From Candidatus Altimarinota bacterium (GTDB lineage Bacteria > Patescibacteriota > Gracilibacteria > BD1-5 > UBA6164): 64,000 nucleotides of DNA. The notes below the pieces were generated by a model. It did not search any database, was not told the origin of the DNA, and worked only from the letters and a program-made list of their open reading frames with translations. Positions 7,840 through 56,306 of this stretch are shown piece by piece. The translations under genes and the position numbers were made by a program. The stretch is taken from the NCBI GenBank assembly GCA_943356435.1, contig CALREY010000002.1:62001-126000 (forward strand), in the 5' to 3' direction. Numbering within the stretch: position 1 is the stretch's first letter; every line of letters begins with the position of its first letter.

Positions 7840-7881
7840 AAAAACAAGAAACTTGATAAAATTATCAAGTTTCTTGTTTTT
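7840..7881 (-). terminator. Terminator of the S74-chaperone protein gene
   Basis: Perfect stem of about 20 bp (AAAAACAAGAAACTTGATAA and its complement) that overlaps the TAA stop at 7880-7882. Confidence 0.85.
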
Positions 7882-8875
7882 ATTTATTTTCCAATGCTTC
7901 AATCCTCTTTTTTAATTCATCATTTTCTTTTTTTAATTCCTTCACTGATTCTATTAAAGGAGCAACAAGTTTACCGTAATCTACTGATTTATAGCCATCT
8001 GTTCAAGTAGCTACAAATTCTGGAAATACTTTTTCTACATCTTGTGCTATTACTCATGTATCCTCTTTTTTACTATCTTTCCAATTAAATGTTACTCATC
8101 TCAGTTTTTTTATCTTTTCTAATGGATTAATTATAGATTTTATATTTTCTTTTTTTCTTATATCTGAACTAGTATTCCAAGCAGCTGCTAGAGCTGTACC
8201 ATTTACATGAAATAGTTGACTAGGATTAGAATGTGATATTCATACATTTCCATTAGCTAAAATATATAATGGATATGTTCATGATGTTATATTTCTTATT
8301 TGAAACGAATCAGGTGAATTATCAGCTACAATATCCCACTTTCTAACAGAATTTTCCATACGAATAGCTCAATAAACATGTAGTTTTTGTTCAGGTGTAG
8401 TTTTTCATATTCATACATTAGTAGAATAATGATCTATAACCATGAAAGGATTTCATGAATTAAGAAATTGAGTTTGAGAAATCTGAGGTCATGTTCCACG
8501 AGTAAAATAAACTGCATTTCATCATCATGCTCAAGAATCATTTATTCCTTGTAAATAAAATGTTCCATCTGAACCTGTTCCTAAATTCCATTTCTTTTTA
8601 TCTGCTGGAGCACTAGAATTCTCTGACATCATCATTCAATTTACATGTAATTTTCATCATGGATTTGAAGTACCAATACCTATACTTCCAGATGAATTAT
8701 ATACTCAATTTAACTTATCAGTATTATTATTCACATCTGCAACCATATTATTCCATAGAGTTGCTGTAAGTCCATCCCCTGTACTCACATTTGATAGTGT
8801 TGCATATGCTCATGCTGTAATTGATATCACTGATAGTGTTATAACTATTTCTTTTATGTGTTTTTGTAGTTTCAT
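7880..8875 (-). CDS. Exported protein with C-terminal S74 (endosialidase-type) intramolecular chaperone
   Basis: 331 residues. An N-terminal signal-like segment ends near AGAYA. The body has the repeated motif NPGGKLHVNG, TPEQKLHVYG, NPSQLFHVNG typical of trimeric tail-fibre-like beta structures. The C-terminus is a Peptidase_S74 domain: SSDIRKKENI at about residue 235 with the conserved Ser-Asp and Arg-Lys of the self-cleavage site, then GVTFNWK, TGVIAQDVEKVFPE, VDYGKLVAPLIESVKEL and a terminal coiled coil. Such domains trimerise and cleave themselves off. They are best known in phage tail spikes but also occur in bacterial surface proteins. No phage genes lie nearby. It is divergent from tig. 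Confidence 0.88.
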
Positions 8876-13041: not shown

Positions 13042-15780
13042 TTATTTAGAAACTTTATCAGCTTGTAAATATTCACTAATAAATGTAGATATAAGTGGTG
13101 CTGGTTTTCTGAATAAACTAGAACCAAAACTTACTATTGTTCATACATCTACTTGATTGTTAGAATTTTGTTTTACATACGTTCTTTTGTTTATCAAATC
13201 ATTGATATTTCAATATAAAGAACCAGTAACATTTAATATATTTGTAGTAGTTCATCCGATTCATTCAATTTTTCAACCTTGTGAATCTTTTACTATACTT
13301 ATATATGTTCCATCAATCAATGTAACATTTCTATTTACTTGTATATTTCATCATTTTACTACGAATGCAATATTATCAGTAACATCTATATTTGAATTTA
13401 TAACTAGATTTCAATTTTCTATAATATAAGTTCTAGATCATGAAATATTATTAAATGTATTTGCTCATACCAAGAAATTTTTATTTTTTAGTATGTATAC
13501 ATTTGTAATACCATTATAGCTTTCAAAATCTGATAAATTAGAAGTATCAGCAACTGTTTCAGAACTAGTATTTGCTAATTTATTAATATTTTTAGTATAA
13601 TTTTTTCATTCTTTATCTATTTTATCTACTGATAATGCATCTTTTATTTTATTTGAATAACTAGAAATATCTCATTTTGATACTCATACTCAAACAAAGT
13701 TTTGATTTTTTGTTGCATTTAATACTCAGTTATCTGCAATTTTTGTGATATTTCATACTGTAGAAGTATTTGATACATAACTTGTACCACCTCATGTAGT
13801 AGCAACACTTGATTGTGCAACTCTTACTTTTAATGGAGCTACGAAATATGCAGTATTATACAATTTTTCTTTATGTTTAATTGTAGTTACTATTATATTA
13901 TCTCAATAATTTCAAGATGTAATAGTCTTTCATTCGAAATCTGGTGTAGAAGGAAAATATTTAGTAGATCATGCTTCTCATTTTCTCTTAATTATTCATG
14001 CTGGAATACATTGTGTAGTACCATTTAATGTTGTTCAAGAAGTTTTAACAACACATAGTTCATCGAAATACAAATCATAATCAGATTCATTTTTTATGTA
14101 TGGTCTTCATAATGAATGTGCTTCATATGGATTCATACCTGCTCAGATAATTACATTATCTTTTGGTCAGAAAAACATAGCTCAACCATTTGGAATAGTT
14201 ATTTCACATATTCAATTATCTTGACAATGTCAAGGTACAGTATTATCCTTATAAGTACAATCTCTATTACAGAAGCCCCAATCAGAAGATGAACCGAAAT
14301 CACATTCTTCATTAAATAAATGACTATTTGGTCTTTGCACCCTACCATCTCAACAATATGTTCATCCTCATCCACTTGATCATCCACCTCAACCTCCACC
14401 TCAAGATGGTGTATAACTCGCATTACACATTCATCCACTTAATCATCCACAATCCCATGAATAATTATTAGTAGTTCATGAAACTGTAGTTTTGAAATTT
14501 GTCATAGCATATCATGTTTGACATAATCATGCAGTAGATGCAGATATAGGCGAAGTTTGTACTCAGTGAGTTGGTCAATAATAACAACTACTTCAACCAC
14601 CACCTCATCCAGATGTATAACTAGCAGTACAAGTTACTCATGCAACTCAATCACATGTCCAAGTATAGTTAGTAGTATTACCATTTGGAGTAGCTACGAA
14701 ATTTCAAACTGCTAATGTTCAAGTACATAATCCAGGAGTAGCAGCTGTTACAGGAGAAGTACGTACTCATACTGTTGGTCAGTTTTGACAAGATCATCCT
14801 CCTCAACCTGATGTAGTATAACTAGCACTACAATTTCATCCTGAATAAGTATTTGTACCGGTTGTACAACTCCATGCATAATTTGTAGTTCTTCCTGATA
14901 CAGAAGATGTAAATCATGTAGCAGTTTCTCATACAGTAGAACATAGATTTGGAGTAGCAGCAGTAATAGCTGCTGATTGACTACCAGTTACTCATGCAAC
15001 ACAAGTGTGAACTGGTGGTGTATAACTAGCATTACAATTTCATCCTGAAAATACTGTTGTACCATTTGTACAGCTCCATACATAGTTTGTAGTAGTTCAT
15101 GTTGTACTAGAAGAGAAATTTGTAACTGTTTCTCAAGCAGTAGAACATAGATTTGGAGTAGTAGGTATAATAGGACTAGTTTGTGTACCTGTTACTCAAG
15201 CATTACATACAGGAGTAGTAATAGGCTGACAAGTAGCGTTACATCATCCTGATCACCATCCTGTTTTATTTGGATCAGTTGGATCACAAGTTTCTCATTG
15301 GTCTGTATCTAAAATACCATCTCAACACCAAGTAATTTCATAATAAATACACTCATTATGTGTTTTTAAATTACTCATATTCCACACACTACCATTTCTC
15401 TCATAATATTTAGCACTATATTGTATTACTAAATTATCTTTTGATCTTACAGGAGGATGATAATTAACTGGATACATAGTATCAGCTTGTAATACCCTAC
15501 CAGCATCTCCTGGTTCTAAAATATATTTTTTTCATACAAACCAGCTAGTCCATGAAAATTTTGGAAAATCACTAGATCAATTATAATCATATTGTTCAGT
15601 ATAATTTACATCTATAGAATTTATTCATTTAGCTGTTGTTCAATTATTTTGGAAATCATCATAAAAAGTGTATTGATGTCAATACCTCAACTTTCATTGA
15701 AAAGTTTGGTCACAAGAATAACCATAACTATCAGTTATGATTAATCCTGCGATGATGCATAATAATATTAATTTTCTCAT
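13042..15780 (-). CDS. Secreted surface protein with four tandem Cys repeats and polyglycine linkers
   Basis: 912 residues. Signal peptide MRKLILLCIIAGLIITDSYG. Two copies of the CGDG..D..GE.CD cysteine motif (CGDGILDTDQGETCD near nt 15290, and CGDGRVQRPNSHLFNEECD near 14350) recall DUF4215/Myxococcus-type disulfide repeats. Between them are four tandem repeats of about 65 to 70 residues (nt 15207 to 14360), each of the form C..G....Q(T)SP...A(T)P.LC....TTNY.W.C...C.ASYT. The last two end in runs of six or more glycines, encoded by alternating GGN and UGA. The C-terminal 300 residues form strand-rich repeats that may be a beta-helix. No sortase signal was seen. A probable adhesin or stalk; function inferred. 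Confidence 0.85.
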
Positions 15781-19422: not shown

Positions 19423-20112
19423 TTATGATTTAGTTTTAAATTTTAATATTCAGAAACCAGATATCATAGCAATAACTATTAACATCATGAACTCTCCAGG
19501 TCAAGTTTGTGGTAATTTCTTTGGAGCAGTTGGAATAACTACTTCTGGAGCTTTAGCATCTCCTGATTTGAAAAGTACACATTCTAAGTGAGCATTACTA
19601 CTATCCATACTTACTTCACCTCAAGCTAAAATATTGTGTGTAGTAATAGGATATATTAACATACCAATATTTTGTCATGATTTAGCTGTATTTTTTTCTA
19701 ATGTATAAGCACTAGCTAAACTTGATTTCAACCATGTAGAAGATTTTCCAGGTGCTAAGATATAACCAAAATCTTTTTCACTATATAATGCATTAAATTC
19801 ATCAGTATATTCCCAGAATTTATCAGCACTTGGTGTTTGAGTCCAAGTTACATTTGTATTATCCAAATTTACCATGTAAGGATCTTTTTGTTCTTCTTTA
19901 TATAATATTTTACTTGCATCAGTTGTATTTTTCCATAGATCAGATAACAAACCTAGATTATCACCTTGAACTTTTGAACCTCAATCAAAACATTGGTTAC
20001 AAGAATTTTCTTGAAACGCTTTGTCAGTAGAACATTGTATTTCTTCATACGCAGCAAATGAAGGAGTAGAGATTGCCAACAATGATAAAACTGCAAGTAA
20101 TTTTTTATTCAT
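19423..20112 (-). CDS. Secreted protein with C-terminal LPQTG sorting-type signal
   Basis: 229 residues. Signal peptide MNKKLLAVLSLLAISTPSFA. The mature part has three Cys near its start (CSTDKAFQENSCNQCFDGGS). The C-terminus reads KLPQTGPGEFMMLIVIAMISGFGILKF and then basic residues. That is LPxTG, hydrophobic span and positive tail, the order used by sortase substrates. The Gly of LPQTG is UGA. No sortase gene is in the window. The 19423-20112 gene follows yidC by 85 bases, with a terminator between them. It may be attached to the envelope or kept in the membrane by the C-terminal span. Confidence 0.85.
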
Positions 20113-27140: not shown

Positions 27141-27614
27141 TTATAATGAATACATAATGCTAACTATTAAATTAATGATTCAAGCAGCAGATATTAGAGC
27201 TATAAATCAGATAATTCACCATTTTATATTATTTTTTGCTTTTGTTATTTTTTCATCTTGTCATGCACTTATTGTCATTATAAATGCTCAATAAACTATA
27301 GATCATACAGCTAAAACTCATAGATATATAGATATGTTATTTACCCAATTAATAATTTTTTGAGCAAATCATCATCCTTCCACAAATGTATCTGTTCAAT
27401 CAACTAATTGTGATCATTGTAAACATCAATCTAATGCTTCTCATACTTTGGCTGGATTTTCAGAATCTATATCATAGGTACAATTTGTAGATCATCCACT
27501 ACTACTTCATCATCAAGAACTTCATCATGTAGTTCAATTGAAATCAGAATATGAATAATCTAATCCTGTAAATAATGAAATAGATAATAAAAATATGATA
27601 AATATTTTTTTCAT
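27141..27614 (-). CDS. VirB2/TrbC-like pilin-like membrane protein (copy A)
   Basis: 157 residues. Signal peptide MKKIFIIFLLSISLFTG, then a Gly/Ser-rich stretch with many UGA glycines (GTTGGSSGGGSSSGGS). Two hydrophobic helices follow, joined by a charged loop: VYGAFIMTISAGQDEKITKA, then KWGIIGFIALISAAGIINLI. The signature (small hydrophobic helix, SAGqDEKitKAKn, second helix) is that of T4SS-type pilins common in candidate-phylum bacteria. Fourth gene of a five-gene operon; gaps to its neighbours are 11 and 4 bases. Confidence 0.8.
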
Positions 27615-27625
27615 TTTATTTAATA

Positions 27626-28012
27626 TTAAAAATTTAATCATGCAACAAGCTTCACAGCTGCCCAAGCAATAGCTACTAAAAATATTCATACTATAGCATA
27701 AACTAATTGATTTATAGCTTTTTTAAAAGCATCTGCATTTCATCTTGCCAAAGCTAGTCTAACTCATATGAATAAAAAAGCTCATATAGCAATCATAGCT
27801 AATAATCATGTAAGTGAATCTTTTACCCATTTTAATATAGAATCCAGCATAGATAATCCACTTCCTTTAGTTGCTATAACATCGTTTTTTGTAATTCATA
27901 ATAATGCATCTTTTACATAACTATCTCATACAGTTCTAGTAGCAGCACTTGTGATATAAATTATAAAGATATTTGAAAAAAATACATATATCAAAAATAA
28001 TTTTTTTAACAT
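27626..28012 (-). CDS. VirB2/TrbC-like pilin-like membrane protein (copy B)
   Basis: 128 residues. N-terminal signal segment MLKKLFLIYVFFSNIFIIYI, then two membrane helices separated by a short charged loop: GAFLFIGVRLALARGNADAF, KKAINQLVYAIVGIFLVAIA. The loop is less conserved than in copies A and C. GIFLVAIAWAAVKLVAG ends the protein close to the C-terminus. Third gene of the operon, starting 10 bases after copy C ends. Probably a minor pilin or inner-membrane partner; inferred from paralogy and position. Confidence 0.75.
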
Positions 28013-28022
28013 ATTTTAACGA

Positions 28023-28397
28023 TTAAGAAATATATATATTATTTAACATATTGATTATTCACCAAGCAGAAATAGAAATAACTACTCATATAAGTGACCA
28101 CATTATCCAGTTTTTTGCTTTTTTTGTTTTATCTTCTGCTCATCCAGATGTCAAATATAACATACCACTTATAATCAAAGCTATTACTGCAAAAACAGCT
28201 ACATATTGTATTACTTGTCATATTATATTTGTTATAAGCATGATTCATATATTGTCACCAATATTTGCAGATGTAGGATTCATTTTATCACTATCAACAC
28301 AACCTGGTAATCATACACAGTTCACTGAAGGTGCTGCTGCAAAAGTGTAACTATTTAAAAATAACAAAATAGTTATTATAAAAATTTTCTTTAACAT
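28023..28397 (-). CDS. VirB2/TrbC-like pilin-like membrane protein (copy C)
   Basis: 124 residues. Signal peptide MLKKIFIITILLFLNSYTFA, a short Cys-containing segment (NCVGLPGCVDSD), then the clearest pilin signature of the four: IISGMLYLTSGGAEDKTKKA, KNWIMWSLIGVVISISAWGI. Two of the Gly in this stretch are UGA. Same fold type as the orphan gene at 55947-56306. Second gene of the operon, 17 bases from copy D. Confidence 0.82.
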
Positions 28398-28414
28398 AAA
28401 ATATTTATTATTTA

Positions 28415-28969
28415 TTAATTATCTCCAAAATAAAGTAAATATCTAACTATAGACACTATATAATAAGCACTTAAAGCAGTTATCATAGCATAAACTCCAG
28501 ACATAAATATTTTTTTTCATTTACTCAATTGTTCATCTTGTCCATAATAAGTCAGCATATATCATGCTCAAATAGTCATTATAAGTATTGCTAGACTTCA
28601 AAGAGCTATCATCAAGTTTTGGATAATAGTACCAAGTAAATAATTCACATTTTCTTTTGTTGTAGTTCATTGTACTCACATACCAGGAGATATATCATTT
28701 ACACTTATAGTAAATCATTGACTAGTAATATCTCATTGTGCTTCAGGTGATTTATCATAATCTTCTTTTAGTTTTTTCATATCAACTGATGATTCATAAG
28801 ATTTTAAATCTTTTTGCAAATTTGCTTTTTTTGCTGAATCTTTTTCTTGAGAAATATTATGTTTATATGTATTTATTTTACCTAATGCATCTTTATAAGT
28901 ATCTGTTGCATAAACAGAAATAGTACTAGAAAAAATTAATAAAATAAAAATTATAAATATTTTTTTCAT
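28415..28969 (-). CDS. VirB2/TrbC-like pilin-like membrane protein (copy D, extended)
   Basis: 184 residues. Signal peptide MKKIFIIFILLIFSSTISVYA, then a charged coiled-coil-like extracytoplasmic region of about 60 residues (DALGKINTYKHNISQEKDSA), absent from the other copies. Then come two membrane helices with a TYYGQDEQLSKGKKIF loop, a divergent version of the pilin signature. It is the first gene of the operon, so a promoter should lie in the 110 bases between 28969 and the divergent glycosyltransferase gene. Confidence 0.75.
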
Positions 28970-32046: not shown

Positions 32047-34665
32047 ATGAAAAAAATCCTTAGTTACCTACTCTTAGCTTTTTTTAGTTTCCACATATTT
32101 GGAGCTAGTAGTTATGCATTTGTTGATTCTAGTCAATTGGAGTCAAACAAAAAAAATTCAATGGTATACAAAATCAAATTAAACGAAACTGTTAAATGAA
32201 AAAAGTATATCAAGATAATAGATGCATTTATTACAAAAAACGCAGATAATAAGGAAATACTAGAAGAATTATCAAATAAACTTACAAATATTTTAGATAA
32301 TAGTAAAACAACAAATAATAGCAATACAGATATATTAAAATACATAAATGCTAAAATAAATATATCGCTAATAGCTATATATGAAGAAGAAAAAAATGAT
32401 ATTTATGCAGATGTAATAAGTGAAAGTGATAAAAAAACAATAGAAGATAAAATAATAAAACTTCAATTAAATACTCTTGAATCATGATATAATTTTACAG
32501 AAAAATTTATAAAAGAATTCGAAGATCTAAATAATTACCAAGAAACTTGAAACTTCGAAGTAGATTTAAATATTGATCATGAAGCGGTTGGTAAATTGGA
32601 TTGAAATATAAAACTAAGCGATTATACAAGTAATGTTTCAAATTTTGACAGTCAATTGAAATGAAAATTGGAAACATTAATAAATGCTATGCCTAAATGA
32701 GAAAAAGAAGCAAAATTACAATTAAATAGTATGATAGATTTGATATCAAAAGATTGAAATATGTATATATTACTTCAAGATTTGAAAATAACAGATAGTG
32801 ATACTACTGAAAAATTAAAAAGTGATATAGAAAAAATAAAACAATTAGCAAAAGAAAATAAATATATCAAATATAACAATGCTGAAACTCAAGCTTGATT
32901 AAATATATTAAAATCATTGAATCCAAAAGCAATATATGAAGATGGAAAAACAATATTAGCTAAACCATTAGTAACAGCATATAAAAAAGAATGAAACAGA
33001 TATTATTTAAAACCGACTAAATATGCTTGTGATAAAATGAAAGAATTATCAAATAGATTTGATCCTATAAATCCTTCATATTGTAGTGATAGTCAGTATA
33101 AAAATGTATTAAAAGACTTAAGTGAGTTGTGAACTTTTTATGCAGAACTATGAAATAATAATGAAACAAAAATAGTATTTATATGAAATAAACTAACTAA
33201 TAATATAAATAAAAATGATTTTTCTATATTATTTGATGATACTAAAATAAAAGAAGTATCATATAATCTAGAAGGTCCTAATACTACAAATATAAAACTA
33301 GATTATAAATATAAATCAAATCTAAATCTATCTATAAAAACAATAGAAGAAAATAATATCAACTTAGTAACTACTATAAATAGCGAAAATAAATTTACAA
33401 AAATAGATTTAAATAGCGAATCAAATGGTTCATATAGTAGAAATAAAATGAATCTGAAATTGGATAACAAATTAATTTCTGGTAATTTCGAAGTAGTAGA
33501 AAAAAGCTATAATTGGGATGAAGATAAATACATGGATGATAGTAAATTATCTGGAACAATATCTGGAAAAACTGATTCAGATAATAAATTAGCTGAATTG
33601 TATGTAGCATATAAATGAAATTATATAGCAGATAATAAAGAATATTTAAACTGAAAATTTAATTATATAAATTCTAAATTTGATTTCCAAAATACATATG
33701 AAAAATATTGAATTAAACAAAATATAGTATTTAATTGAAAATTTGATGCAGATAAAATACTTGATTCTTGAGACTTTTCATTAAAATTATATAAAGATAA
33801 TAATATGTATAAGCAAACTTTTGAGGATACAATTTATACTCCAGATTATAAAGAATATTGAAATATCTCTATAAATATAGTAGATAAAAACATAACTTGA
33901 ACTACTAAAATAACTAATGATTGAAAAGAATTATTGAGTATAACTCATACTTGAAATTATGGAAAAGATAGATTCAAACTAAAAAATAATTTCACTTTTA
34001 TAAATCCTCTTGGTTGATATGTAATAGATGCAAAAAATAGTAAAAGATCTAGTGATATATGAAATATTCAAGGAGCAATAAGTCTAAAACAAGTAGAATG
34101 AGCAGATATCAAATCATTTATAGTTCAAAATAATAAATATGCATGAAAAGATATATATGTATGAACTAAAAAATTAACAATATGAGAAAATTACTTCGTA
34201 TGAACTCCTAATTATGAAGTATTGAATATTTATAAACAAGATTTCTTGGATCCAAATGAAACTGAATATATTATTTGAGCTACAAGTGAAAATAAATGAC
34301 AATTTCAAATATATGCTCTAATGGAAACTGATGAAGGATTTAAAGCAAAAGTTAATTGAACATATTCACCGAAATGAAACGATACTAAATCATTAATATT
34401 TATTGATGGTAAACAAGTATTAGATGGTGATTTGACTAAATGATCTACAGTAGTAAAAGAAGATGTAAATAAAATTACTTGAAACTTTGATATGGATTTC
34501 GATACTTCAAATAATAAAAACAATATAGAATTAATATTGAATGTTATCATTTGAGCAAAAGAAGTATTTAATGGAAAAATAAAAAATACATCTAATAAAA
34601 CAATTAAAAAAGTAGAAATAACTACTCCAACTAATACAATAGATTATGATAAAATAAAATATTAA
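32047..34665 (+). CDS. Large exported protein of unknown function
   Basis: 872 residues. Signal peptide MKKILSYLLLAFFSFHIFGA. Next is a helical module of about 90 residues (YKIKLNETVKGKKYIKIIDA) that recurs in the following gene as a similar N-Q-T-I-K-G-K-K-F-I stretch. From about residue 280 the protein is strand-rich, Asn/Lys/Asp-rich and repetitive (GNFEVVEKSYN, KLDGNIKLSD, GKFNYINSKFD), which looks like a long antiparallel beta or lipoprotein-localisation-like fold. There are no Cys-rich repeats and no LPxTG. I recognise no family. Probably surface or periplasm-located. Confidence 0.82.
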
Positions 34666-34729: not shown

Positions 34730-35983
34730 ATGAAAAAAATTCTTAGTTTAATTGTTTTTTGTTTAGTGTTTTTTAATAGTATGAATATTTATGCTCTATC
34801 ACCTATAGTAGATGATTACCTAGTAAAAAACAAAACAATATACGAAAACCAACTAAATCAAACAATAAAATGAAAGAAATTTATATCTACTATAAATAAA
34901 TTTCTAGAAAAAAATGCTCAAAATGAAACAAAGATAAATGAATTATTAAACAAAATAGAAGCCATAGATATATCAAAAATAAAAAAACAAGATACACTAA
35001 ATAGCTTGATGTACCTAAGTACTGTTTTAAAAATGGCTCAAAATGATATAAACTTAATAAATAATAATCCTGCAAGTAGTTATGAAAAATTGTCTATAAC
35101 TGTCTATGATGACAAGAGATGTACAAGTTGTCCAACTCAAGAAGTAATAGACCAATTGAGATTATTACCATCTATATCATGAGTAGAGATAATCAAAAAA
35201 GATTTCTCAGATGCTTGAGTAGAAAAATATTTAACAGATAATCAGGTAACAGCCCTACCTCTAGTAGTATTTAATACTAACAACTTCGATGTAACTCAAG
35301 ATGAATGACCAGATAATACAAAAGTAATTAATTATTTAGTACAATTACCAAGTGGAGGATATAGTCTAAATATATGAGCAACTTTTGATCCATTTGAAAA
35401 AAGAAGTACAAAGTGATTTCTAGTACTAGAAAAAGAAAAACTACAAAAAATAAAGGACTCATCATATATAAAATGAAATAAAAATGCAAAAATAACTTGG
35501 ATTGAATATTCAGATTTGCAATGTCCATTTTGTGCAAAATTACACAATGAAACAACAAGCGAAGACTTACAAAAAAAATATGGTGATAAATTGAATACAA
35601 TATTCAATCACTTCCCTCTAGATTTTCATGAAAATGCCCAAGTAGCAGCCGAAGCACTAGAATGTAGCGCAGAACAAAAATGAGCAGATACATTTTACAG
35701 TCTAATAGACAAAGTATATGAAGCTCAAGACTCATCTAAAACTTATGTAATAGAACAAGCTGTATCTTTGTGAGCTAATAAAACAACACTAGAAAAATGT
35801 CTAAGTGATGGTAAATATACTCAAAAAGTAAAAAATCAAATGAAAGTATGAACAGATACATTTGATATAACTGGAACTCCATGAAATGTACTGATAAATA
35901 ATGAAACATGAGAATATGAGATAATATCAGGAGCTTATCCTACTAGTGAATTTGAAAAAGTAATAGATGGATTGTTGAAGTAG
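34730..35983 (+). CDS. Exported double-thioredoxin-fold (DsbA-like) oxidoreductase
   Basis: 417 residues. Signal peptide MKKILSLIVFCLVFFNSMNI. A helical module similar to that in the preceding gene comes first. Then a thioredoxin-like domain with CTSC at about residue 131, followed by a DsbA/DsbG-type domain with WIEYSDLQCPFCAKLH (CPFC at about 265) and the cis-Pro loop ITGTPGNVLI at about 380-390, where the second Gly is UGA. It should catalyse disulfide exchange outside the cytoplasm. The neighbouring surface cluster proteins contain many Cys pairs that would need this. Confidence 0.9.
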
Positions 35984-37955: not shown

Positions 37956-40900
37956 CTACCTCATTATATAATCAGCATTCGCTATGAACATCAATCTTCA
38001 TACTTCCCTATTGAATCTTGTATCAACAAGTTTGAAGTACCAGTTTTTGTCTGTTGTTACATATTCTAGTTTATAAGCTTCGTTTTGAGTATTTATTCTT
38101 CAATCTTTAAAAATTGTGAACAGCTCTTTTTTGTCTTCGTCTCATATTCTATAAATAGATATTGCTCATGGATTATAATCTATTGTTTCAGGAGTGCTGT
38201 AATATGCATAGTTTGATTTATTTGTTAACTCAAAATATATTCATTTATCTTTTAAGTTATCGAAATCTTGTACTACACTTACTTTGCTTACTCATTGTAT
38301 TTGTACATATTCATAGTAGATATCAGCTCAAGAATCTTTTACTAATATCTTTGGAAACATAGAATCATTCAGTGAGTTATTAGAAGATAGCACTTGTGTA
38401 GATAGAGCTAAATCTTTGAAAGATATCTTTCAAGTATTCTCATCTACACTTGCTATTTCTGCTCATTGTCTGTACAGTTTCAAACCACTACCAGTAGATG
38501 TAACATTGAATTTATAGTTTCCATCACTTGTTTTAGATTTTTTCAGTCCAGAATCATCAGCCAAACTAGTTACAACTCATCATCTAAATCTGTATAGATT
38601 AACAGGTTCATCTGTTAGTTCTTCATTTAGATTTCATCATACTGCTCATGAGTTGTATGTATTTACTCTCGGAGTTGGAGAATAAACATCTAGCTCAACT
38701 TCTTTATAAGAATGATTGTCATTTCCATCAAACATAGTAATTCAAATCTTTTTCTTGAATATCTTATCAAACGGAGCAAATTCTAGTTTCACTGCTGTTT
38801 GAGAATATATGACTTTTACTTTGTCTTTATATATTCACGAGATATTTCAATCATCATCATTTTGAGAATTACCATCTGAATCAGTATCTGTATCCAAATC
38901 CATATCTACTATTAGTTTAGAAACATTTTTTATTCATGAATCTTCGTAAATATTAGCAGTTAGATTGCTTGTATACTTTTGGTATACAGGTACTTTTATA
39001 GAACTGATTTTCAATTCTGGTGCAGTAGTATCAGCTTCTTTTTGTGGAGCAAATAATACTTGGCTAGACAATGAACCATTTATATTATCCTTGAAAGAAT
39101 TAATCTTTGCATAATAGAAATCATTATTTTTGTTTGTTCTAATATAGTAATCACTAGATTTATATCATAAATCATACAATTCCCAAGAATCAGTTTTTGT
39201 TAAATCAAGTCACAATTCTGAATCATCATAATATTTGATATCTATATATGATTGTTCATTTGATAGATTTTGACTGTCATTATAACTTATCTTTGTTCCT
39301 GGAAATAATGGTTTATTTAGATATGTTCTAATAGCTTGTCATTCATGTATTTCTATGTTTCATGTTTTTACATATGCACTTCATGATATTCACACGATTT
39401 TTATATCATCTGTGAATTCTATATTTTCATATGCTCATACACTTGCAGATTTCACTGCTTTTTCATCTGATTTCAGTACATAATTGATAGAAAAAGAATT
39501 TCATCCTGCATATAGTTGATTTCATTTATTGAGATTTACTAGTTTGTTGTCTCATAAATCATCTTTTATATTTATTAGACTCATTACTTGTATTTTTGCT
39601 CATTTTAGAATTCATACATTATTTATATATGCTAGATTTTTTCTCTTGATAAATTGTTCATTTTCTGAGATTTTTGTAGACTCTTTTATATCAGAGACTC
39701 CATCTATTATAGACTTACTTACGTTTAATGGTCTATAATTACTATCATTAACTCACAAATATTTATCTACCAATTGATAAAATCAGACTCTATAATTATT
39801 TACTTTAGGATTAGTAGATGCAGCAAATCACATATTAATAAATGCATTACTAGATCAGAAATCTCTGAAATTGTTTACAGATTCATGGAATACATCACCA
39901 TTATAAAATTTATTATCTCCAGATTTAACTACTATAGGATTAGTTGTTACATAATTCTTTGTAGGAGCTTGTTCTAGATTTTCTTTTACAAATAGTTGTC
40001 CATTTGCGAAATATAATAAATCTTCATCTGTATCATTGTCTATATCTATGATTTGTGTTTCTTCATTTCCATCTAGTTCATCCAAATAATCAAACAATCT
40101 ATATGAAGTATTTCACTCCATTACATATAGTCATTCATATTTATAATTATATGGAGATCATTGTTTAGCTTGACATGAATTCGCACTTGCAGCTGTATCT
40201 TTTACGATAGAATCAGTTGGTGCAACATAGCTATTTCCATTTGGATTCAATATTACTGCTTTATTTTGAGTAATATCAGCTAATAAATTATCATCACTTG
40301 TCTTTTTGCTTTGAGATTCAGAATATTTTTCTAGTGGAGTTTTGATAGAGTTCATCAAATCTTTTGAAGATTCTTTTAATTCTTCTTTGATTCAATCTCA
40401 TTTTCAATCTACTAGATTTTTAGCTTTCTCTATAAAAGTATCATTATATTTTGATAGTTTTTTATTGTATGCTTCTATTTTTTTATCTGAATCATTTGCT
40501 CATACTTTTGTTACTAGATGATTGTTTCTAGCTTTGTCCAATTGTTTCTTTAATTCTTTATTTTTTATTATTTCAGTATTCAAGATATCTTTTACAATAC
40601 CAAATTTATCAGTATTAGCATCTTGTAAATCTTTTATAAGCTTATCTTCTTTAGAATAAGTATATTTATTTACCTCATCCCATACTTCCCTCACTTTATC
40701 TAGTTTTGGATCAGAAGTAATAGTTTTTGAAGCCAAAGATTTATTCATCAATTTTTTAAATTCTGTATTATCTACAGTTACAGATTTATTTTCATCCAAA
40801 TACTTATTTAGATGCAATATATCTGATGATATTTTTTGTGCTAATAATTTAGCTAATTTTTTACTTACATCTACATTTGCATCTATATTTACATCTACAC

Positions 40901-43900
40901 TTGTTGCTCAGCCTGGAGTAATATCTCTCATATCGCTAGATCTAGCAGCTGTGTCAAACACATTTGTAAAATCATTAGTAAATGCATTTATAGGCATAGC
41001 TATTTGTCTAGCTAGTTCTACTATAAAATCAGCTTCAAATTCCATATTTACATATGTACTTACACTAATAGCATCAACAAATGGGAATGAAAATTCAGGA
41101 CTAGATTTTTGGAAGAAATCAAATCATAAATACCCAGTTCTCTCTGTCAAAAATGCAATTTGGTCTCAAGCTCTCCACTCTGGATGTAGAACAGATGACT
41201 TCAATATACACATAGCTTTAGTTATCAGTTTGATTATATCAACCACTATTTCTATACTAGATAATAACTTAGGTAGTTTAGGTGGTGGTGGTAAATCTGG
41301 TAGCTCTATTTTTGGAAGAGTTGGTAAATCTGGTAACTTCGGAATACTTATAGAAGGTAATACAGGAATTTCTGGAAATTGTACACTAGCAGAAACACTT
41401 ACACTAGGCACTTTAGGCAGATTTAATGCAGGTAAATTAGGTAAAATAATAGGTTTTGATGTGATATTGTATTCTGGTAATGTAACTCTCAATCATGCTC
41501 TAATATTATGTAAATCTAGTATAATATCTGGCCATTTTGGGAATCTAATTACAGGAATCTTTGGCATTATCATATCAACAAGAGAAAATTCTTCTTCAAG
41601 TGCATCTTGTCTCTCATTTTTACAATCGTGACATTCTTCTTGATAATCCAAGAAAACATCAACTAGTAATTGCCAAGATTTTAATACCGCTTTAATCATG
41701 ATATATAATTCAACCCAAGCTTTGAATCTAATACCATTTTTTCATATCCGTCATCCTAACAAGTAAGAAATAGTATCTATATTACATAATACTTGTTCTA
41801 AATAATCTTGTTTTTTTGTTATTAGTTTATTGATATCTTCTGGTATTTCTTTATATGATTGAATTACTTCTATATTATCCCTTAGTGAACTAATCATATT
41901 ATTTGCATTTGATAACAATTGTGCCGAAGCTTTGTTTGATAATGCATTTTCTTGTTCACAAGCTGCTTGATCAGCAGCATTAGGATAATTACATGATTTT
42001 CATAGACTCCATGATTCTGATGCACTATTTACTTCTTCTTCCCGCTCTGACAATGTATTAGTCCAAGAAGATATAGTTCTATTTAATTCTGCATCTGATA
42101 ACCAAGGTAACTCTATATTTACAGTTTCTTGATCTATATAAACCATAGGTAAACTACCGATGAATTCATATGCTTCTTTGATTCAAGAATTTACTTTTTT
42201 AGCATAATTATTTGCTTGTTCATTTCAAATCAAATTAGGATCAATAGCCAAACTATCCATAGCATTTTTTGCTTTGTTTCAGCTCATTTCTCACCAATTT
42301 CAATCTAGTAATCAAGTAAAATCTGGTAATATAACAAAAAGTGTTGGGAAATCTGTCAATTTATTTGCGATTTCTTCTATTTGTCTAGTTACCCAATCCA
42401 TTAACCAACTTGGAAATGGAGTAATTCTTTTCATATTTATCTTGATAACATCTTCGAAGTCTCAGCTAAATAATGATTCTAAATCTAGACTTACATCAGC
42501 TTCAGAATTTCATTGTCTAAACATAGATCTTTGAGGTGATTCTGAAAAATCAATTGGTAAGAAATCAAATGCTTCTTCTACTGGTCATTTTTTTGCTTGT
42601 TCTAGATATTTACCTATTTTTTCAGTTGAAGGATTATTTACTTTTTCTTCTTGTTTACAATTTCCATTGATAACTCAAAAAGTTCCATCTTCTGAATAAT
42701 TAGGAGTTCATGTAGATCAAACATCTCAATCAGATCAATCTCCTGCACATCAAAATGTCTTTTTAGCAACTACTATACAGTTTCATCCTGGAAATAATGG
42801 ACTTATAGTTTCTGGTACAGAATTCCCCGCAATATAAGCTGGTCATCAGAAACATATAGCTGTTCATATTCCTCAGGTTAATGTAGGAGTAACAAATAGT
42901 CTAAAGAAATTTGTAGGATTATATATTCATAGTTCTCAACCAGCTCATTTTCATGAACATCATACACTTTTTACAGATGATGGCCATACACTAGGAACAC
43001 ATAATGGTCAAACATTTTCCCAAGTCAACATAGAAAATAGAGGCAATCATTCATCTACTATCAATCAATCTCAAATATATTTTCACATAAAAACTGGATC
43101 AGATCATGGTGCTAGTGGTGCCCAGTTCAATGGTGATGCAAAACAAGATTCATTTCCAAATCAACAATTCAATCATTGAACAATATTATCTAAAGCATCC
43201 AATGCTCACTCTATTTTTGATCACATTCATCACAAATCAACTGTAATACTTCAATCCATTTCAAAGCTATCTTCTTCATTTGGAAGTCAATCTCTATCAT
43301 TATCTTGATGCATTTCATTCAATTTTTGTTTTGAATATTTTTGTAGTTCTTCTGTATTATCTGGATTTGATAATTTATCAATATAGTCAGGAACTCAATT
43401 ACCATCATTATCAACAGTATTTTGTTCTATTTCTGGTGGTAGTTTTGATTTTTCTGCATCACAAACAGGTGCTTTTATTCATTTTTGATATGATCTATTT
43501 ACTTCTCATGATCTATATATCTCTATAGGATTACTACAATTTTGATTATTAGGTTTTATGATAATATCTCCATATTTATCATCTCCTGATTCACCTTTTT
43601 CAAACAATCAAACTTCTATTTTATTGTATTTTAGAGGTTTAACTTTAGTTTGATAAGTAAATTTAACAGATCAATTTACTGGAATATCAAAATTATCAAT
43701 CAAATAACTATATCAACTAGTTCAATCAAAAATATCAAAATCTGTCAATGACTTGAATGATTTTGGATCCATAGTAAATACATCTGCAACAGTATCAGCA
43801 AATACTACATTATTTAGTTTTACATTAGATACATTTTTCAGAGTTACTTCTACTTCAACTGAATCATTAGCTGAAACAAATTTACCATTTTTATCTACAA

Positions 43901-46900
43901 ATTTTTTCTCGACTTTCAATCAACTATGTTCACTATATTCACTTTTTAAGAAATAAGAGTTTCATCTTTCTTCAGTGAAATCTTCACTTCAATCTATATA
44001 GTTTCATTCATCTATAACTACTTTTCAATTAGAATATGGGTATTTAACAAATAAATAATTATCTATTTGAGAATTTTTTGTTACTTTATCCCCTGGTTGA
44101 TATAATCAATCAAAATATACTAATCATCCATCATTTCTAGTATCAGAACTAAGAGTAACTCAATGTTCACCTGAAATTGCTTTCTTTGTAAAATTTGGTT
44201 TTTCACTTGTTCATCATCCATAGAAAATATTTAATTCTCAGAAATCATCCAATGTAACAATATCCAATTTCCCATCTTTATCCATATCATACTTCTCTGC
44301 TCTTACTATTTTTCAAGCTAGTTTGAAATCGTCTACAAGAGAAATTCTAGTGAAATCCTTGTTCACATTATTTAATATATAAGGTTTTCATAGCTTTGAT
44401 ACAAAGAATATATCATCATATCAATCTCATGTGAAATCTCATGTTTTCAATAAATCATGTGCTCATAAATCTACTATTTGTACCAAGTTTCATTTATCTA
44501 GTAGATTTTGTTCTACTTTTTTATTCTCTAGTAGTTTCAAATAATTATCATCTTTTATCAATAATATATCATTTTTCTTATCATTATTATAATCAAAAAG
44601 TTGATATCATTTTATATCATCATCTGTTGAAACTAATTTTCAAATACTAGAATCAAATTTCCTATCTGTATTTGTTTTAGGTAATTTTTGTTTGATTTGT
44701 TTCAAGCTTATTACTGGATCTCATAGATTGATAACAGAAAAACTCATATAGTCTTTCACTGACTCTCACACCGATTTACCAGCTGAAAATTCTAGAAGAG
44801 ATTTATTACTTCATGACCAACCTATTCCTTGTTTATTAGAAAAATTTTCTACTCAATCAGTATTATCACTAGAAAACGAATTTAATTTATTAGTTTTAGT
44901 AAATGGATCATTATAATAAATAATCTTTGATTGACTATTAGTATTTCAATTATTGTAGGTTCAATAAGCAGATGTTTTTAACAATATTGCTATAGAATTA
45001 GTAGTATTCTCAATTTTTGAATTAAATACATTTTCATCTTTTGAAGTACTTATAGTAGGTTTAATAAAATTGTATCACAATTCTGCAATATTTTTTCCAC
45101 CTGTAATAATATTTAATGATAAATAACTAGATGTGTTTGTAGGATTGTAAGCTATTTCTACTGATCATAGTCTATTTATAGAACCATCTTCTAATATTTC
45201 TATCAGATTTTTACCGTAAATATCCCTAAGAATCAATTTATTATCATTGAAATATGCTTTATAATTTTGTGAATTTGATTTCAGAATTATAGATGTGTTT
45301 TTTGTATCTATACAAGAACTTATACTATTTTCACATGTAGATAATTTAGTATTGTCATCAAAGTTATAAAATATTTTTCAAATAAATGTATTTAATGCTT
45401 TATTATAAACATTTAAACCTAATTTATTATTTACAAAATAAGGATTTATTTGTATATCTTGAGATAAATCATTCTTTGATGAAAGTATTTTTAGTCATCA
45501 ATTATTATTTAAATCAAGTACATTATTATATGCAAAAGGATTATTTAAGACAGAAGTAACAGCTAATGATCTATTATTTTTTTCAAATAATAAACTACCA
45601 GCTAAATATCATTGTTCATATATGTCTCAATAATTTGATCACAACAATGTAGTATAAATAGAATTATATTTCTTTCAGATTAATTTAGTATCATTCCAAA
45701 AATAAAATGTTTCTATTTTCAAAGCATTTTCTCATACTCATTTCACCTCTACTTCTCACTTATCACTCATTATTTTAAATGAATTAAGTGATAGACTAGG
45801 ATTTGTTCATACTTTGAAATATGCTACTCATGGATTTACTGTTCAATAAATTTTGAAATTACTTACTCATTCCGTAACTGTTTGAGTTTTATTATCAGAA
45901 GTAATTATATTAGCGTATTGATCAAGTATTTCTAAGTCAGTTTTTGTACTATTATCATTGAAAACTAGATTATTATATCTATCTTTTAATTCTATATTTA
46001 GATTTGATACTGCTTTAGGTGATGCTTCGATTTTGTTTTGTGATAAGTTCAAATCTAGCTTCACAGCTACATCAGGATAGATTGTTAAACTTTTTTGTAC
46101 AATCTTTTTTAGTCATTCTACTTGGAATTCAATAGGAATATTTTTTCATGCTACAGTCTTTGTAGAAAACTCAACTTCAGCTATTCAATTCTTTAATTCA
46201 AAATAAGGATTAGTAGAATCCAAAAATATAGAATCAGCAACTAAATATGCTCTAGAGTTGAAATCTGATAATAATTTCCCACTTGTATCTCTTAGTGAAA
46301 CTTCAAATTTGTATTTTCAACCACCTACTTTTACATCACCAGATAATGGTTTTGCTACTAAATTGATATCATCATAAACATCTACATTTTTTGATGTACT
46401 TGTTATTTCTTTTCCATCTTCATCCAATACTGATGCCTTTATAGTACTTCTACCTGCTTTATCTTTTGATTGTAGTCTGAATACTTTGTATCATTCGTAT
46501 GTAGTAGTTATTAATTCATCTGATGAAGTATCTAGAAATTGAGTGGTATTTCAATCTATTGATAATTTCAAATCATAGAATTCTCAAATAACAGGATTTA
46601 AATATTTATCATGAATAGTTAAGAAATTAGTAGAAATATTTCCACCTGATTCCATCACTGAAGTACCAAGTTTCATATCTACACTATTTGGCAGCTCTGG
46701 TAAAAATGTAATATTTTTTATAGTTTTAAATCAATTTGCATCTGTTACTTCTAGCTTATAAGTACCCGATTTTTTAATAGCAGATATTGCCTTGAATGAT
46801 TTTAACTCGTTTTGTGTCAAACTAATATCATCTTGGATTTTATTCGCTCAATCAAATATACTTACATTAAGTGGGTAATTGATTGGTGATTTTTTTCCAT

Positions 46901-49900
46901 TTTGAGATTTATTTTCTAATAATACTACAAATTTCTCTGCACTAGTACTAGAATTATTTATCAGGTTTGATACTGATTTAATTGTATTCTCTGTTCAGTC
47001 AACTAAAAATAAATTTGATTTATCACTTACTTTTAGTGAATTCGATAAATTGTTTATTTCTAACTTTCAATTAGTAGATACTAATTTATTTGATAGATTA
47101 AATAATTTATCTCATCTTATTTGTATTTCTAATGAATTAGATTTCAAGAAAATAGATTGAGAATTATTTGAATCATTTACTTTTACAGATGCTTTTAAGA
47201 ATATATTTGCATCAGTAGATTTAAGTCCTATTCAATAATTTGCTACTCAATATTGAGCTCTAACATTTCAATCTTTGAAAGTTACGTATTTAGCAGCCAC
47301 TTTTAAATCATTGTTTGATGTATCACTAGCACTAAATACTGTTTTTTTATTATTAGCTGTTATTTCTTTTGTAGTATCTTTTGCTATTTCGATTTTATCT
47401 AACTCAAATGTAATATCGGTACTATTTGCTATTTTTACTGTTTTTCCATTTTTATCTTGGATTTCAGATTTTAACTCTGCATTACTATTGAAATAATATT
47501 TTTGACTATCAGCTGTCAAAGTTATTTGTCATCAACTTAGATTTTTTTCTATACAGTCATTTATACCATTCTTATCTACATCTCAATTACATTGAAGTAC
47601 TTCTTGTTTTTCAGAATCAGATAAAAAACTATTTTGCATTCATCCTCCTCATCCAGCTCATCAAATAACACTAGTTCAACATTCTCAATCAGAAATTCAG
47701 ATAGATGGTGGCATCATATCACCCAACCAACACATTATAGCTGGTATCCAGCTCCAAATAGGTACTCAATCTGGAGGTGCACATTTCATATCTTGATTAC
47801 TTTGTGATCATCATGCAGAATTATTTCATGCTACATTTGCTCATAATAATGAAGAAGATAGATTTATATTATCAGAAAAAATACTTGTATATGGATTTTC
47901 TTGTTTTGCTTTTGGATCCATTTTTATATACATATTTTGAGCATTTCATCCAGCTCATAAATATGATATTTCATATTGTTTTTTATTTTTTGGTAATAAA
48001 TAATGCGATTCTTGTTCTCAGAATTGATCAATTAGATAATTATCAAATATAAATCAATATTTAGCAGAAGTAGAATTCAAATTATTCCAATACAATGATA
48101 AAACAAGAGTATCATAATAACTCAATGTTTTTTCATCTCATGCAACTTTGAAAGTTTTATCAGCTTTATTTTTTAAGATTTTTGTTAAATCAAAATTATC
48201 ATCAGGATATGAACCTGTTTTTAACAGATTGTATATATCCTTATCTTTTCAATTCAAAGATGAAGGATTTGATGCTCTTATTAGTTCATTTATCTCTTTT
48301 GATTTTTCTGCCAAAACTTTATCCAATTCTTCCGCAATAGTTGCATAAGATATTTTGGCATTATCTTTTATTTTTAATCTAAATAAATTTGGATAAAATA
48401 TTTTAGAATATTTCCCATTTGAAGCTACGAAGTCAACATATCTATTTTTATCCACTGGAAGAGCCTCAGCTATCATAGAATTAATTTCTTTAGAAAGCTC
48501 ATCACTAGTTGGAGATTTATGTTCCAAAATAGAAGGTATTTTTTTGTAATCAAATGTATAATCACCACTTCACGCTACATTTTTTCCATCCAAGTTTATA
48601 GATCCACTTGGACTTTTATAATTTTCTTCAAAAGATTTAGAAAATCAAAAAGTCTTTCAGTTATTATTATCAGTAGTACAAGTCCAATCTGCTCTTCAAC
48701 CAAATGAGGGGATTCTATAATCTACATAACATTTTCAATCATTATCTGTATCATGAGATTGTGCTAATATGAAATTATTATCCAAACAATTGAGAGGAGA
48801 ATAAATCTTACTACTATCTGTTCTCTTTTGAGATCATCCTATATCAAAAATAGGATAAATAGCTCATTTATAATCATTGCTTTTTAAATCTCTGATTCAA
48901 TTAACTAATTGTTGAGTATTTAGATTAAGTGGTGTATTACCTCACCAAAATCAATTTAATGAACTTCATGAAATAAGATTTTGGAAACAATAATTTCTAT
49001 CTGGCTCATTATAAAGTGTATCTTTATCAGTATTAGAATAATTTATATTAAATCATCTATTAGCTTCAACCAATGTTCAACCACTCAAACTAGATCATCT
49101 GTAAATACTACATTCAGCTGTAGACTTGATATCTTCTGCCTTTTTTCAGAATAAGTAATTTTGGTAAATAGTACCGCATCCATTAGCATCTGTCATTCTA
49201 GTTGGCAATGCAATATCCCTAGATAATCAATTTTTTACTAGATCATCTATTTGTTTTTCTATTTCTGTATTTATATCTTTTGTTATTTCATCGTTTACAG
49301 TATCAAGAACAGTAACAAAATAAGGCATCATATCAACATTTAGTGATGATCCACTTCCATTATATCTTCAAGCATTGTGGACATCTTTTCTGAAATCTCA
49401 TATAGTCCCCTTTGCAAATATTTCTAGAAATTTTTTTGTCACATTTTCTACTATATGTCTAGTATGAATATCTGGTACTCTACTTGTATCTGGTTTTTCA
49501 GCTATATATTCTTTTGCATAGTTTGAATCAACTTTTTCCAATAATTTAGCTATTGTATCATTAGCCGTTCATGTACTTTTGTTTACTACCGCATCTGATA
49601 ATTTTTTGTTAAATCTAGAATAAAGTATATCTTCTTTATTTTCTAGATATGATTCATATGCTTGATAACTATTATAATTAAGAGCTTTTTCTTCTCTGAT
49701 TTGGTCATAGTAAAAAACATATGGTTCATAAACACTAGGTACACCTACTTCTTTATTTCAGTTTAATACTCATGCTGAGTACTTGAAATTACCAGTACCA
49801 GAATAATAATCATGATTTTTAGAAAAAAAATCTTTTATTCAATCTATATTTTTCTCAAAACTTCATAGATTTGGACTAATAACTCAATGCCAAATCTCAG

Positions 49901-50408
49901 ATTTCATACCGTTTTGATTATCAGTATTTTTTTCATATCTATTTGTTTCATTGTTATAGATATATACTTTATCATCAAAATCAGTAAAAGGAAGAATAGT
50001 TCTAGAATAAGTATTATTATCAAATACATTTGGTAAATTGAAATTTCAAACTACAACTGTTCAGACCAATTTTGATTCGAAATCTGCATTTTTATCAATT
50101 GCTTTGTATCCCTCTGTATAAAGTGATTCATTTAGAGAAGCTATATTGAAAGCTGGAGTATTAACAGGAGTAGGTAAAATAATTACTTTAGTATTTTCTA
50201 GTACTCATTGAATATCTTTTGAATATCTATTTAATTCATCTTTTGTTTCATCATAAGTATCTTGGTCTACGATAATAGAAACAAGATTATAAAAATCTGA
50301 ACTTCAAGCAAATGTATCAAAGTTTATAGGAACTCTGAAACTAATACTTAAAAGTAGTGAAAAAATTAAAAAACTTGATGTAAATTTTTGAAATTTTGAG
50401 TAATTCAT
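37956..50408 (-). CDS. Giant secreted multidomain surface protein (4150 residues)
   Basis: One frame with UGA as Gly runs from ATG at 50408 to TAG at 37956. Nine separate fragments that are open even in the standard code all fall in this frame. The N-terminus MNYSKFQKFTSSFLIFSLLL is a signal peptide or anchor. In order: a long N-terminal domain; an EF-hand-like DVDKNGINDC at about residue 940; Ig-like beta repeats to about 1550; VCBS/FG-GAP-like calcium repeats (GDFTGDGYDDIFFV, DMDKDGKLDIVTLDD) near 1950-2050; DUF11-like and thrombospondin-3-like DNDGNGVPDY and DNDRDGLPNEED near 2320-2380; LNCGFG...NWAPLAPG near 2420; a Pro-rich LPxLP stretch at 2980-3050; a helical region; then C-terminal beta domains. 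Probably an adhesin. No LPxTG was found. I read long stretches but not every codon for stops. Confidence 0.85.
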
Positions 50409-50506
50409 AAACAATTTTTTCGCTAGATAAATAAAACAAAAAATACTTTTTAACATTTTACTAAAAAATCTATATTTTACAACATTTTTTGTATAAATTA
50501 ATTATA

Positions 50507-55946: not shown

Positions 55947-56306
55947 ATGAATAATGTAATTAAAAATAGCTTATATACAACTGTTTGAATAGCACTAGTT
56001 AGCTTAAATACTGCTAATGCAACTATTAACTCTGGTCAATGAGTACAAGCTGGTTTAAGAACTGATGGAACTGCTGATGTAGTTATACAAACTTGGTTAC
56101 AAAATTTATTAACTTTCTTATACTTAGTAGCTGTATTATTAGGAATATGGTGAGGTTTCAATATCCTGACAGCAGCATGAGATGAAGGTAAAGTTAAAAA
56201 AGGTAAAACTATTCTTATTCAAGCAATTGCATGAATCGTAGTTATATTCTTAGCTGGTTCAATTATCGATTGGTTATTAACATTTATCGTTGGTTGAGGT
56301 AAATAA
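55947..56306 (+). CDS. Orphan VirB2/TrbC-like pilin-like protein
   Basis: 119 residues. N-terminal signal (MNNVIKNSLYTTVGIALVSL, cut near NANA), a short soluble stretch with Gln/Gly/Trp, then two hydrophobic helices with the pilin-type turn: LLGIWGGFNILTAAGDEGKV, KKGKTILIQAIAGIVVIFLA. It is closest in design to copy C of the 27-29 kb operon. It has its own consensus promoter and a terminator immediately after the stop, so it is an independent unit. The smooth sequence and strong promoter suggest a major, abundant subunit (inference). Confidence 0.85.

What the first reader, a model, noticed from the sequence alone, without database searches (positions are those of the whole stretch)
37956..50408. 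Uninterrupted 4150-codon gene for a giant surface protein
About a fifth of the window is one gene, seen only when TGA is Gly. It joins Ig-like repeats, calcium-binding VCBS/FG-GAP and thrombospondin-3-like loops, a Cys block ending NWAPLAPG, a Pro-rich LPxLP spacer and C-terminal beta domains. Size and layout suggest a long adhesin for attachment to host cells or particles. Such proteins are known in candidate-phylum bacteria, but this domain order is new to me.
Basis: partly seen in the sequence, partly recalled or inferred. Interest (0 to 1): 0.66.

Follow-up and report, generated by a model that had tools for sequence, protein, structure and literature searches.

The report
Class-wide conserved giant secreted protein
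The gene is real: it encodes a 4,150-residue exported protein of a Gracilibacteria bacterium, and it belongs to an unnamed family of giant proteins, about one per genome, that most of this bacterial class carries and that is older than the class's change of genetic code.

Summary
With TGA read as glycine, the MINUS strand of 37956-50408 is one open frame of 4,150 codons plus stop, with 200 TGA and no in-frame TAA or TAG. The gene is under purifying selection throughout, and TGA codons line up with glycine in relatives that use the standard code. The DNA has no long repeats, and about 30 separately assembled genomes carry the same full-length gene (4,124-5,471 aa), so an assembly join is very unlikely.

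The "new domain order" is the order of a whole family. It is in 48/48 genomes of the taxonomic family and 50/50 near-complete genomes of the order. About 70% of the class has it, as single frames of 3,760-5,849 aa, including lineages where TGA is a stop. It was not convincingly found elsewhere in the phylum. Layout: signal peptide, unmatched alpha/beta N-terminal region, invasin-like Ig domains, FG-GAP propeller, calcium loops, a Cys/Gly block (NWAPLAPG), a helical region with an LPxLP spacer, and a beta-rich C-terminus. The N-terminal and Cys/LP regions match nothing in Pfam or PDB.

Best reading: a core exported envelope or cell-contact scaffold. Attachment to host cells is plausible but untested. 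No anchor, variable tip or catalytic site was identified.

The parts
37956..50408 (-). Whole gene, code 25 (TGA=Gly), 4,150 codons plus stop; ATG at 50408. An upstream in-frame ATG at 50456 would give 4,166 aa.
50307..50408 (-). Sec signal peptide (residues 17-50 in P0001 numbering), with invariant Ala50 at the likely cleavage site
   Evidence: A34 of A2 invariant; second most hydrophobic segment; signal-like N-termini also in far relatives
47712..50306 (-). N-terminal region, residues 51-915: alpha/beta sandwich with conserved PYTDF and EIWHG motifs, then helical and Cys-containing parts; conserved class-wide; no Pfam or PDB match
47547..47591 (-). Thrombospondin-3-like calcium loop between two Cys, CNGDVDKNGINDCIE (956-970)
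   Evidence: conserved in A5
45777..46799 (-). Invasin/Big_1-type Ig-like domains (about 1220-1560)
   Evidence: Invasin_D3 15/18, Glyco_hydro2_C5 15/18, Big_1 6/18 members; weak in the window copy itself
44127..44669 (-). FG-GAP/VCBS-like probable beta-propeller (about 1930-2110; best stretch 2007-2067)
43557..43958 (-). DUF11-like beta domain (about 2167-2300), weak
   Evidence: DUF11 in 3/18 members, best E 0.0008
43269..43424 (-). Thrombospondin-3-like calcium loops (DNDGNGVPDYID, DNDRDGLPNEED)
42627..43208 (-). Cys/Gly-rich block with NWAPLAPG (2417-2610)
41568..42458 (-). Helical region with CxxC (Cys2942, Cys2945) (2667-2963)
   Evidence: low-confidence model
41262..41567 (-). LPxLP proline-rich spacer with class-invariant prolines (2964-3065)
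40977..41258 (-). Conserved segment after the spacer (3067-3160): CILK..PEWRAGDQIAFLTER
37959..40199 (-). C-terminal beta-rich region (3420-4166), beginning with an FG-GAP-like loop; no recognised family; no membrane anchor or LPxTG

Best explanation
The gene is the Gracilibacteria (BD1-5) member of a class-wide, vertically inherited, single-copy family of giant exported proteins. Shown: one continuous gene, conserved architecture, purifying selection, an N-terminal export signal, and Ig, FG-GAP and calcium-loop modules. Inferred: the chain is exported by Sec, cut by signal peptidase after about residue 50, and folds outside the membrane with calcium ions and disulfides (conserved cysteines; a DsbA-like gene lies close by). 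It would then form a long cell-envelope or cell-contact scaffold, with the propeller and Ig modules as the extended beta part and the helical/LPxLP segment as a stiff spacer. Host-cell contact is the most likely purpose, because the lineage is thought to be host-dependent; this last step is untested.
For: Intact frame. Present in 48/48 family genomes, 75/77 order genomes and 50/50 near-complete ones. In the class, the N-domain is in 206/288 genomes and the core in 201/288. The far relatives that were read are single frames of 3,760-5,849 aa and colinear. The core's tree keeps the taxonomic groups together, as vertical descent predicts. Purifying selection. Export signal and no other strong membrane segment. 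Ig, FG-GAP and calcium loops. Invariant Cys and Pro. DsbA-like neighbour at 34730-35983. Literature: giant membrane proteins proposed for host attachment in the Absconditabacterium Vampirococcus (PMC8080830); VCBS-repeat proteins found in a Gracilibacteria metaproteome (PMC11452946).
Against: No surface location, binding partner or expression was shown for this protein. No anchor was found, so it could be released. The N-terminal region could be an enzyme. The C-core model is poor (pLDDT 60). The DsbA neighbour is clear in only one close relative's locus (82% identity); two others gave weak hits. Some class families (f7, f10) lack the gene, so the class lifestyle does not require it.
Confidence: 0.62

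Rival explanations
1. A dedicated host- or particle-attachment adhesin: the far end binds a receptor and the rest is a stalk.
For: Invasin/Big_1-type Ig domains, FG-GAP, great length; host-dependent lifestyle proposed for relatives (PMC8080830, PMC11452946).
Against: No tandem repeats, no hypervariable tip, uniform constraint; conserved in genomes that presumably have different hosts.
Confidence: 0.4
2. A secreted enzyme or multi-enzyme scaffold, for example acting on host envelope or detritus, in which the conserved N-terminal alpha/beta region is catalytic and the rest provides binding and reach.
For: The N-terminal region is an alpha/beta sandwich with class-wide invariant motifs (PYTDF, EIWHG) modelled at pLDDT 80. 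FG-GAP modules occur in secreted enzymes (8w20 secreted esterase, E 3e-7).
Against: No enzyme family match; no significant fold match; no Peptidase_C25 in this protein or in the sampled phylum (the controls did not ring either).
Confidence: 0.2
3. A structural envelope protein (surface layer, cell-to-cell connector or stalk) unrelated to host recognition.
For: Core-gene distribution, single copy, strong constraint.
Against: No SLH or other S-layer family match; absent from complete genomes of families f7 and f10.
Confidence: 0.3
4. An artefact: mis-assembly or chance frame created by reading TGA as Gly.
For: None beyond the window genome being a draft in 30 contigs.
Confidence: 0.01

Closest known systems
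Giant membrane proteins of Vampirococcus lugosii (Absconditabacteria), PMC8080830
   Same: Up to 4,163 aa, inferred surface location, reported integrin, DUF11 and fibronectin domains, proposed for host attachment
   Different: Described as a set of giants, not as one conserved family; orthology with this gene could not be tested by name here
Large extracellular proteins of Peribacteria/Peregrinibacteria (PMC4736985); 'huge proteins' enriched in Peregrinibacteria (PMC11573180)
   Same: Very large, exported, Cys-rich, some annotated as FG-GAP; poorly characterised
   Different: Reported as strain-variable in Peribacter; the family here is conserved. Family f7, possibly Peribacteraceae (an inference), lacks it or is very diverged
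Invasin/intimin-type proteins (Big_1, Invasin_D3)
   Same: Ig-like domains of the same Pfam families in the middle section
   Different: No outer-membrane barrel, no lectin-like tip; much longer; other unmatched domains at both sides
FG-GAP/VCBS-repeat surface proteins
   Same: FG-GAP_3 over the cut-off and present in all relatives tested
   Different: FG-GAP is a small part of about 4,150 residues; no long VCBS repeat array
PTD-repeat surface protein of gracilibacterium 28_42_T64 (PMC6851277)
   Same: Large exported protein in the same lineage
   Different: Different gene: the ortholog here in that genome has no PTD repeat

Membership tests
Class-wide giant family described here | N-terminal PYTDF/EIWHG region plus Cys/NWAPLAPG-LPxLP core, colinear in one frame | tested here: met
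FG-GAP/VCBS-repeat proteins | FG-GAP repeat over the curated cut-off | tested here: met
   27.2 vs 26.9 bits; 18/18 members
Invasin/intimin adhesins | Big_1 or Invasin_D3 Ig-like domains | tested here: met
   at family level (15/18 members); the window copy shows only Glyco_hydro2_C5 at E 0.004, below its cut-off
Invasin/intimin adhesins | N-terminal outer-membrane beta-barrel and C-terminal lectin-like tip | tested here: not met
RTX/BapA/LapA-type repetitive giant adhesins | Tandem Ig repeat array and RTX or type I secretion C-terminus | tested here: not met
LPxTG-anchored surface proteins | C-terminal LPxTG, hydrophobic stretch and positive tail | tested here: not met
S-layer (SLH) proteins | SLH domains | tested here: not met
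Peptidase C25 (caspase-like fold) | C25 profile match and catalytic His/Cys pair | tested here: not met
   the weak look-alike of VGxIPLP / EIWHGVI is a memory-based lead only, and the C25 controls did not ring
Giant proteins of Vampirococcus | Orthology with a named Vampirococcus protein | not testable with these tools

The most novel reading that the evidence does not exclude
A core, probably essential envelope machine of the class, inherited from before the genetic-code change, in which the two unmatched regions (N-terminal alpha/beta and Cys/LPxLP core) carry out a new kind of cell-to-cell contact or uptake from host cells.
Probability: 0.22. Interest if true: 0.85.

Novelty: new variant of a known kind. 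Interest (0 to 1): 0.6.

Why it matters
How these ultrasmall, host-dependent bacteria contact their hosts is open. A single giant gene shared by most of the class, with constrained regions that no database recognises, is a concrete candidate that structure work, proteomics or labelling could test. Because the same gene exists in lineages with and without the TGA-to-glycine change, it is also a long reporter for how far that reassignment has gone: 7% to 90% of its glycine codons are TGA, tracking base composition.

Tried and rejected
NCBIfam and direct PDB searches found nothing. Fold search of the N-terminal model gave only generic flavodoxin/lumazine-synthase-like alpha/beta hits, best E 0.05, and nothing significant among viral proteins. 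The C-core model was too weak to interpret and its search was empty. A C25/gingipain-like reading of the N-terminal region was considered and not supported. The idea that this is the hypervariable PTD-repeat gene of 28_42_T64 was rejected. Mis-assembly was rejected. The upstream serS/smpB neighbourhood is kept only among some close relatives, so it does not indicate function.

Full report
OBSERVATION. The frame exists, on the minus strand. The plus strand of 37956-50408 is full of stops. The minus strand gives 37956..50456, 4,166 aa from the first ATG. There are 200 TGA and 87 GGN codons and a single terminal stop. At TGA positions, relatives that use the standard code carry Gly in 40-41% of aligned residues, against about 4% at non-Gly codons, so TGA is read as Gly here. 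dN/dS against two congeners is about 0.15-0.2, with no unconstrained stretch. The DNA has no long direct or tandem repeat. Full-length orthologous frames of 4,124-5,471 aa were read from 29 other assemblies; of six further loci, four are cut by contig ends and two are interrupted. A mis-join is therefore very unlikely.

WHERE IT LIVES. The nearest named records are Candidatus Gracilibacteria (BD1-5), including UBA6164 and the complete genome CP042461 of 28_42_T64.

DISTRIBUTION. All 48 genomes of the taxonomic family (20 genera) carry both halves, in general once per genome. In the order, 75 of 77 genomes have the core, and 50 of 50 near-complete ones. In the class, the N-domain is in 206 of 288 genomes and the core in 201 of 288; most listed absences fall in families f7 and f10, and f7 shows only traces (E about 1e-6). 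Across the phylum, convincing matches lie only in this class: 21 of 380 genomes for the core, plus two marginal hits elsewhere, and 14 of 287 for the N-terminal region. Far relatives are single frames of 3,760-5,849 aa, and those in standard-code lineages carry no in-frame TGA. Segment profiles hit them in the same order along the chain, though one (L149) matched only at its N-terminal third. A tree of the core separates f1, f3, f13 and the standard-code group with the fewest possible changes, as vertical descent predicts, although some branches are long. The family therefore very probably predates the code change in this class.

ANATOMY. A signal peptide (17-50) with an invariant Ala at the likely cleavage site comes first. 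Residues 51-915 form an alpha/beta region predicted at pLDDT 80, with class-wide invariant residues in PYTDF and EIWHG; it has no Pfam, PDB or significant fold match. The middle carries invasin-type Ig domains (Invasin_D3 and Glyco_hydro2_C5 in 15/18 members, Big_1 in 6/18) and an FG-GAP region (18/18 members; a match to the FG-GAP-bearing secreted esterase 8w20, E 3e-7). A weak DUF11-like domain follows. Calcium-type loops number 7, against 0.5 expected. The core combines a Cys/Gly block with NWAPLAPG, helices with CxxC, and an LPxLP spacer whose prolines are invariant at about 25-30% overall identity; it matches nothing and its model is weak. The C-terminal 750 residues are conserved but unassigned. 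Apart from the signal peptide, only one weak hydrophobic stretch (about 3061-3088) exists, and there is no LPxTG.

MECHANISM. Shown: expression-worthy coding sequence, export signal, conserved layout, constraint. Inferred: Sec export, signal-peptidase cleavage, calcium- and disulfide-stabilised folding outside the membrane, and a long scaffold role in the envelope or in cell contact. A DsbA-like gene lies at 34730-35983, but it is clearly kept only in the closest relative's locus, so this is a hint, not proof. Published work supports the setting rather than this gene: giant surface proteins proposed for host attachment in Vampirococcus (PMC8080830), VCBS-repeat proteins detected in a Gracilibacteria metaproteome (PMC11452946), large exported proteins in Peribacteria (PMC4736985), and an unexplained excess of huge proteins in Peregrinibacteria (PMC11573180), which this family may partly account for (my inference).

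VERDICT. The adhesin reading is partly supported. The domain order is not a curiosity of one gene but the signature of a class-wide family that, as far as the searched libraries show, has no name. Novelty lies in the breadth of conservation, the unmatched regions and the age relative to the code change, not in being giant.

Noticed in passing
40 code-25 orthologs (window, L027-L061, L155-L158): The fraction of glycine codons written TGA in this one gene ranges from 7% to 90% and falls with GC content (r = -0.91), while total glycine stays near 6-8%.
   Followed up: partly
window 32047-34665 (+): Exported 872-aa protein without a clear family, convergent with the 3' end of the giant gene; homologs lie on the same side in about 12 other genomes' loci.
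   Followed up: partly
window 34730-35983 (+): DsbA-like exported thiol oxidoreductase; its N-terminal part resembles that of the neighbouring 32047 protein by eye.
   Followed up: partly
window 19423-20112 (-): Small exported protein ending in LPQTG, a hydrophobic stretch and a basic tail: a sortase-type anchor in this lineage.
   Followed up: no
window 7880-8875 (-): Exported fibre-like protein with a C-terminal Peptidase_S74 (endosialidase chaperone) domain.
   Followed up: no
window 27141-28969 (-) and 55947-56306 (+): Small exported proteins with two hydrophobic segments, like the type IV secretion pilin-like proteins common in this phylum.
   Followed up: no
window 13042-15780 (-): Exported Cys-rich 912-aa protein with four to five imperfect internal repeats and poly-Gly linkers; no Pfam match.
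   Followed up: no
class families f7, f10: Near-complete genomes of these families lack the giant; f7 has only traces (E about 1e-6). f7 may be Peribacteraceae (inference).
   Followed up: partly
G010:C37: This contig is an inverted duplicate of itself around the giant gene, probably an assembly artefact.
   Followed up: no
L149 (G202:C19): Far relative whose conserved matches stop after its N-terminal third and which has several overlapping frames over 3,200 aa, suggesting a very long low-complexity or repeat stretch.
   Followed up: no
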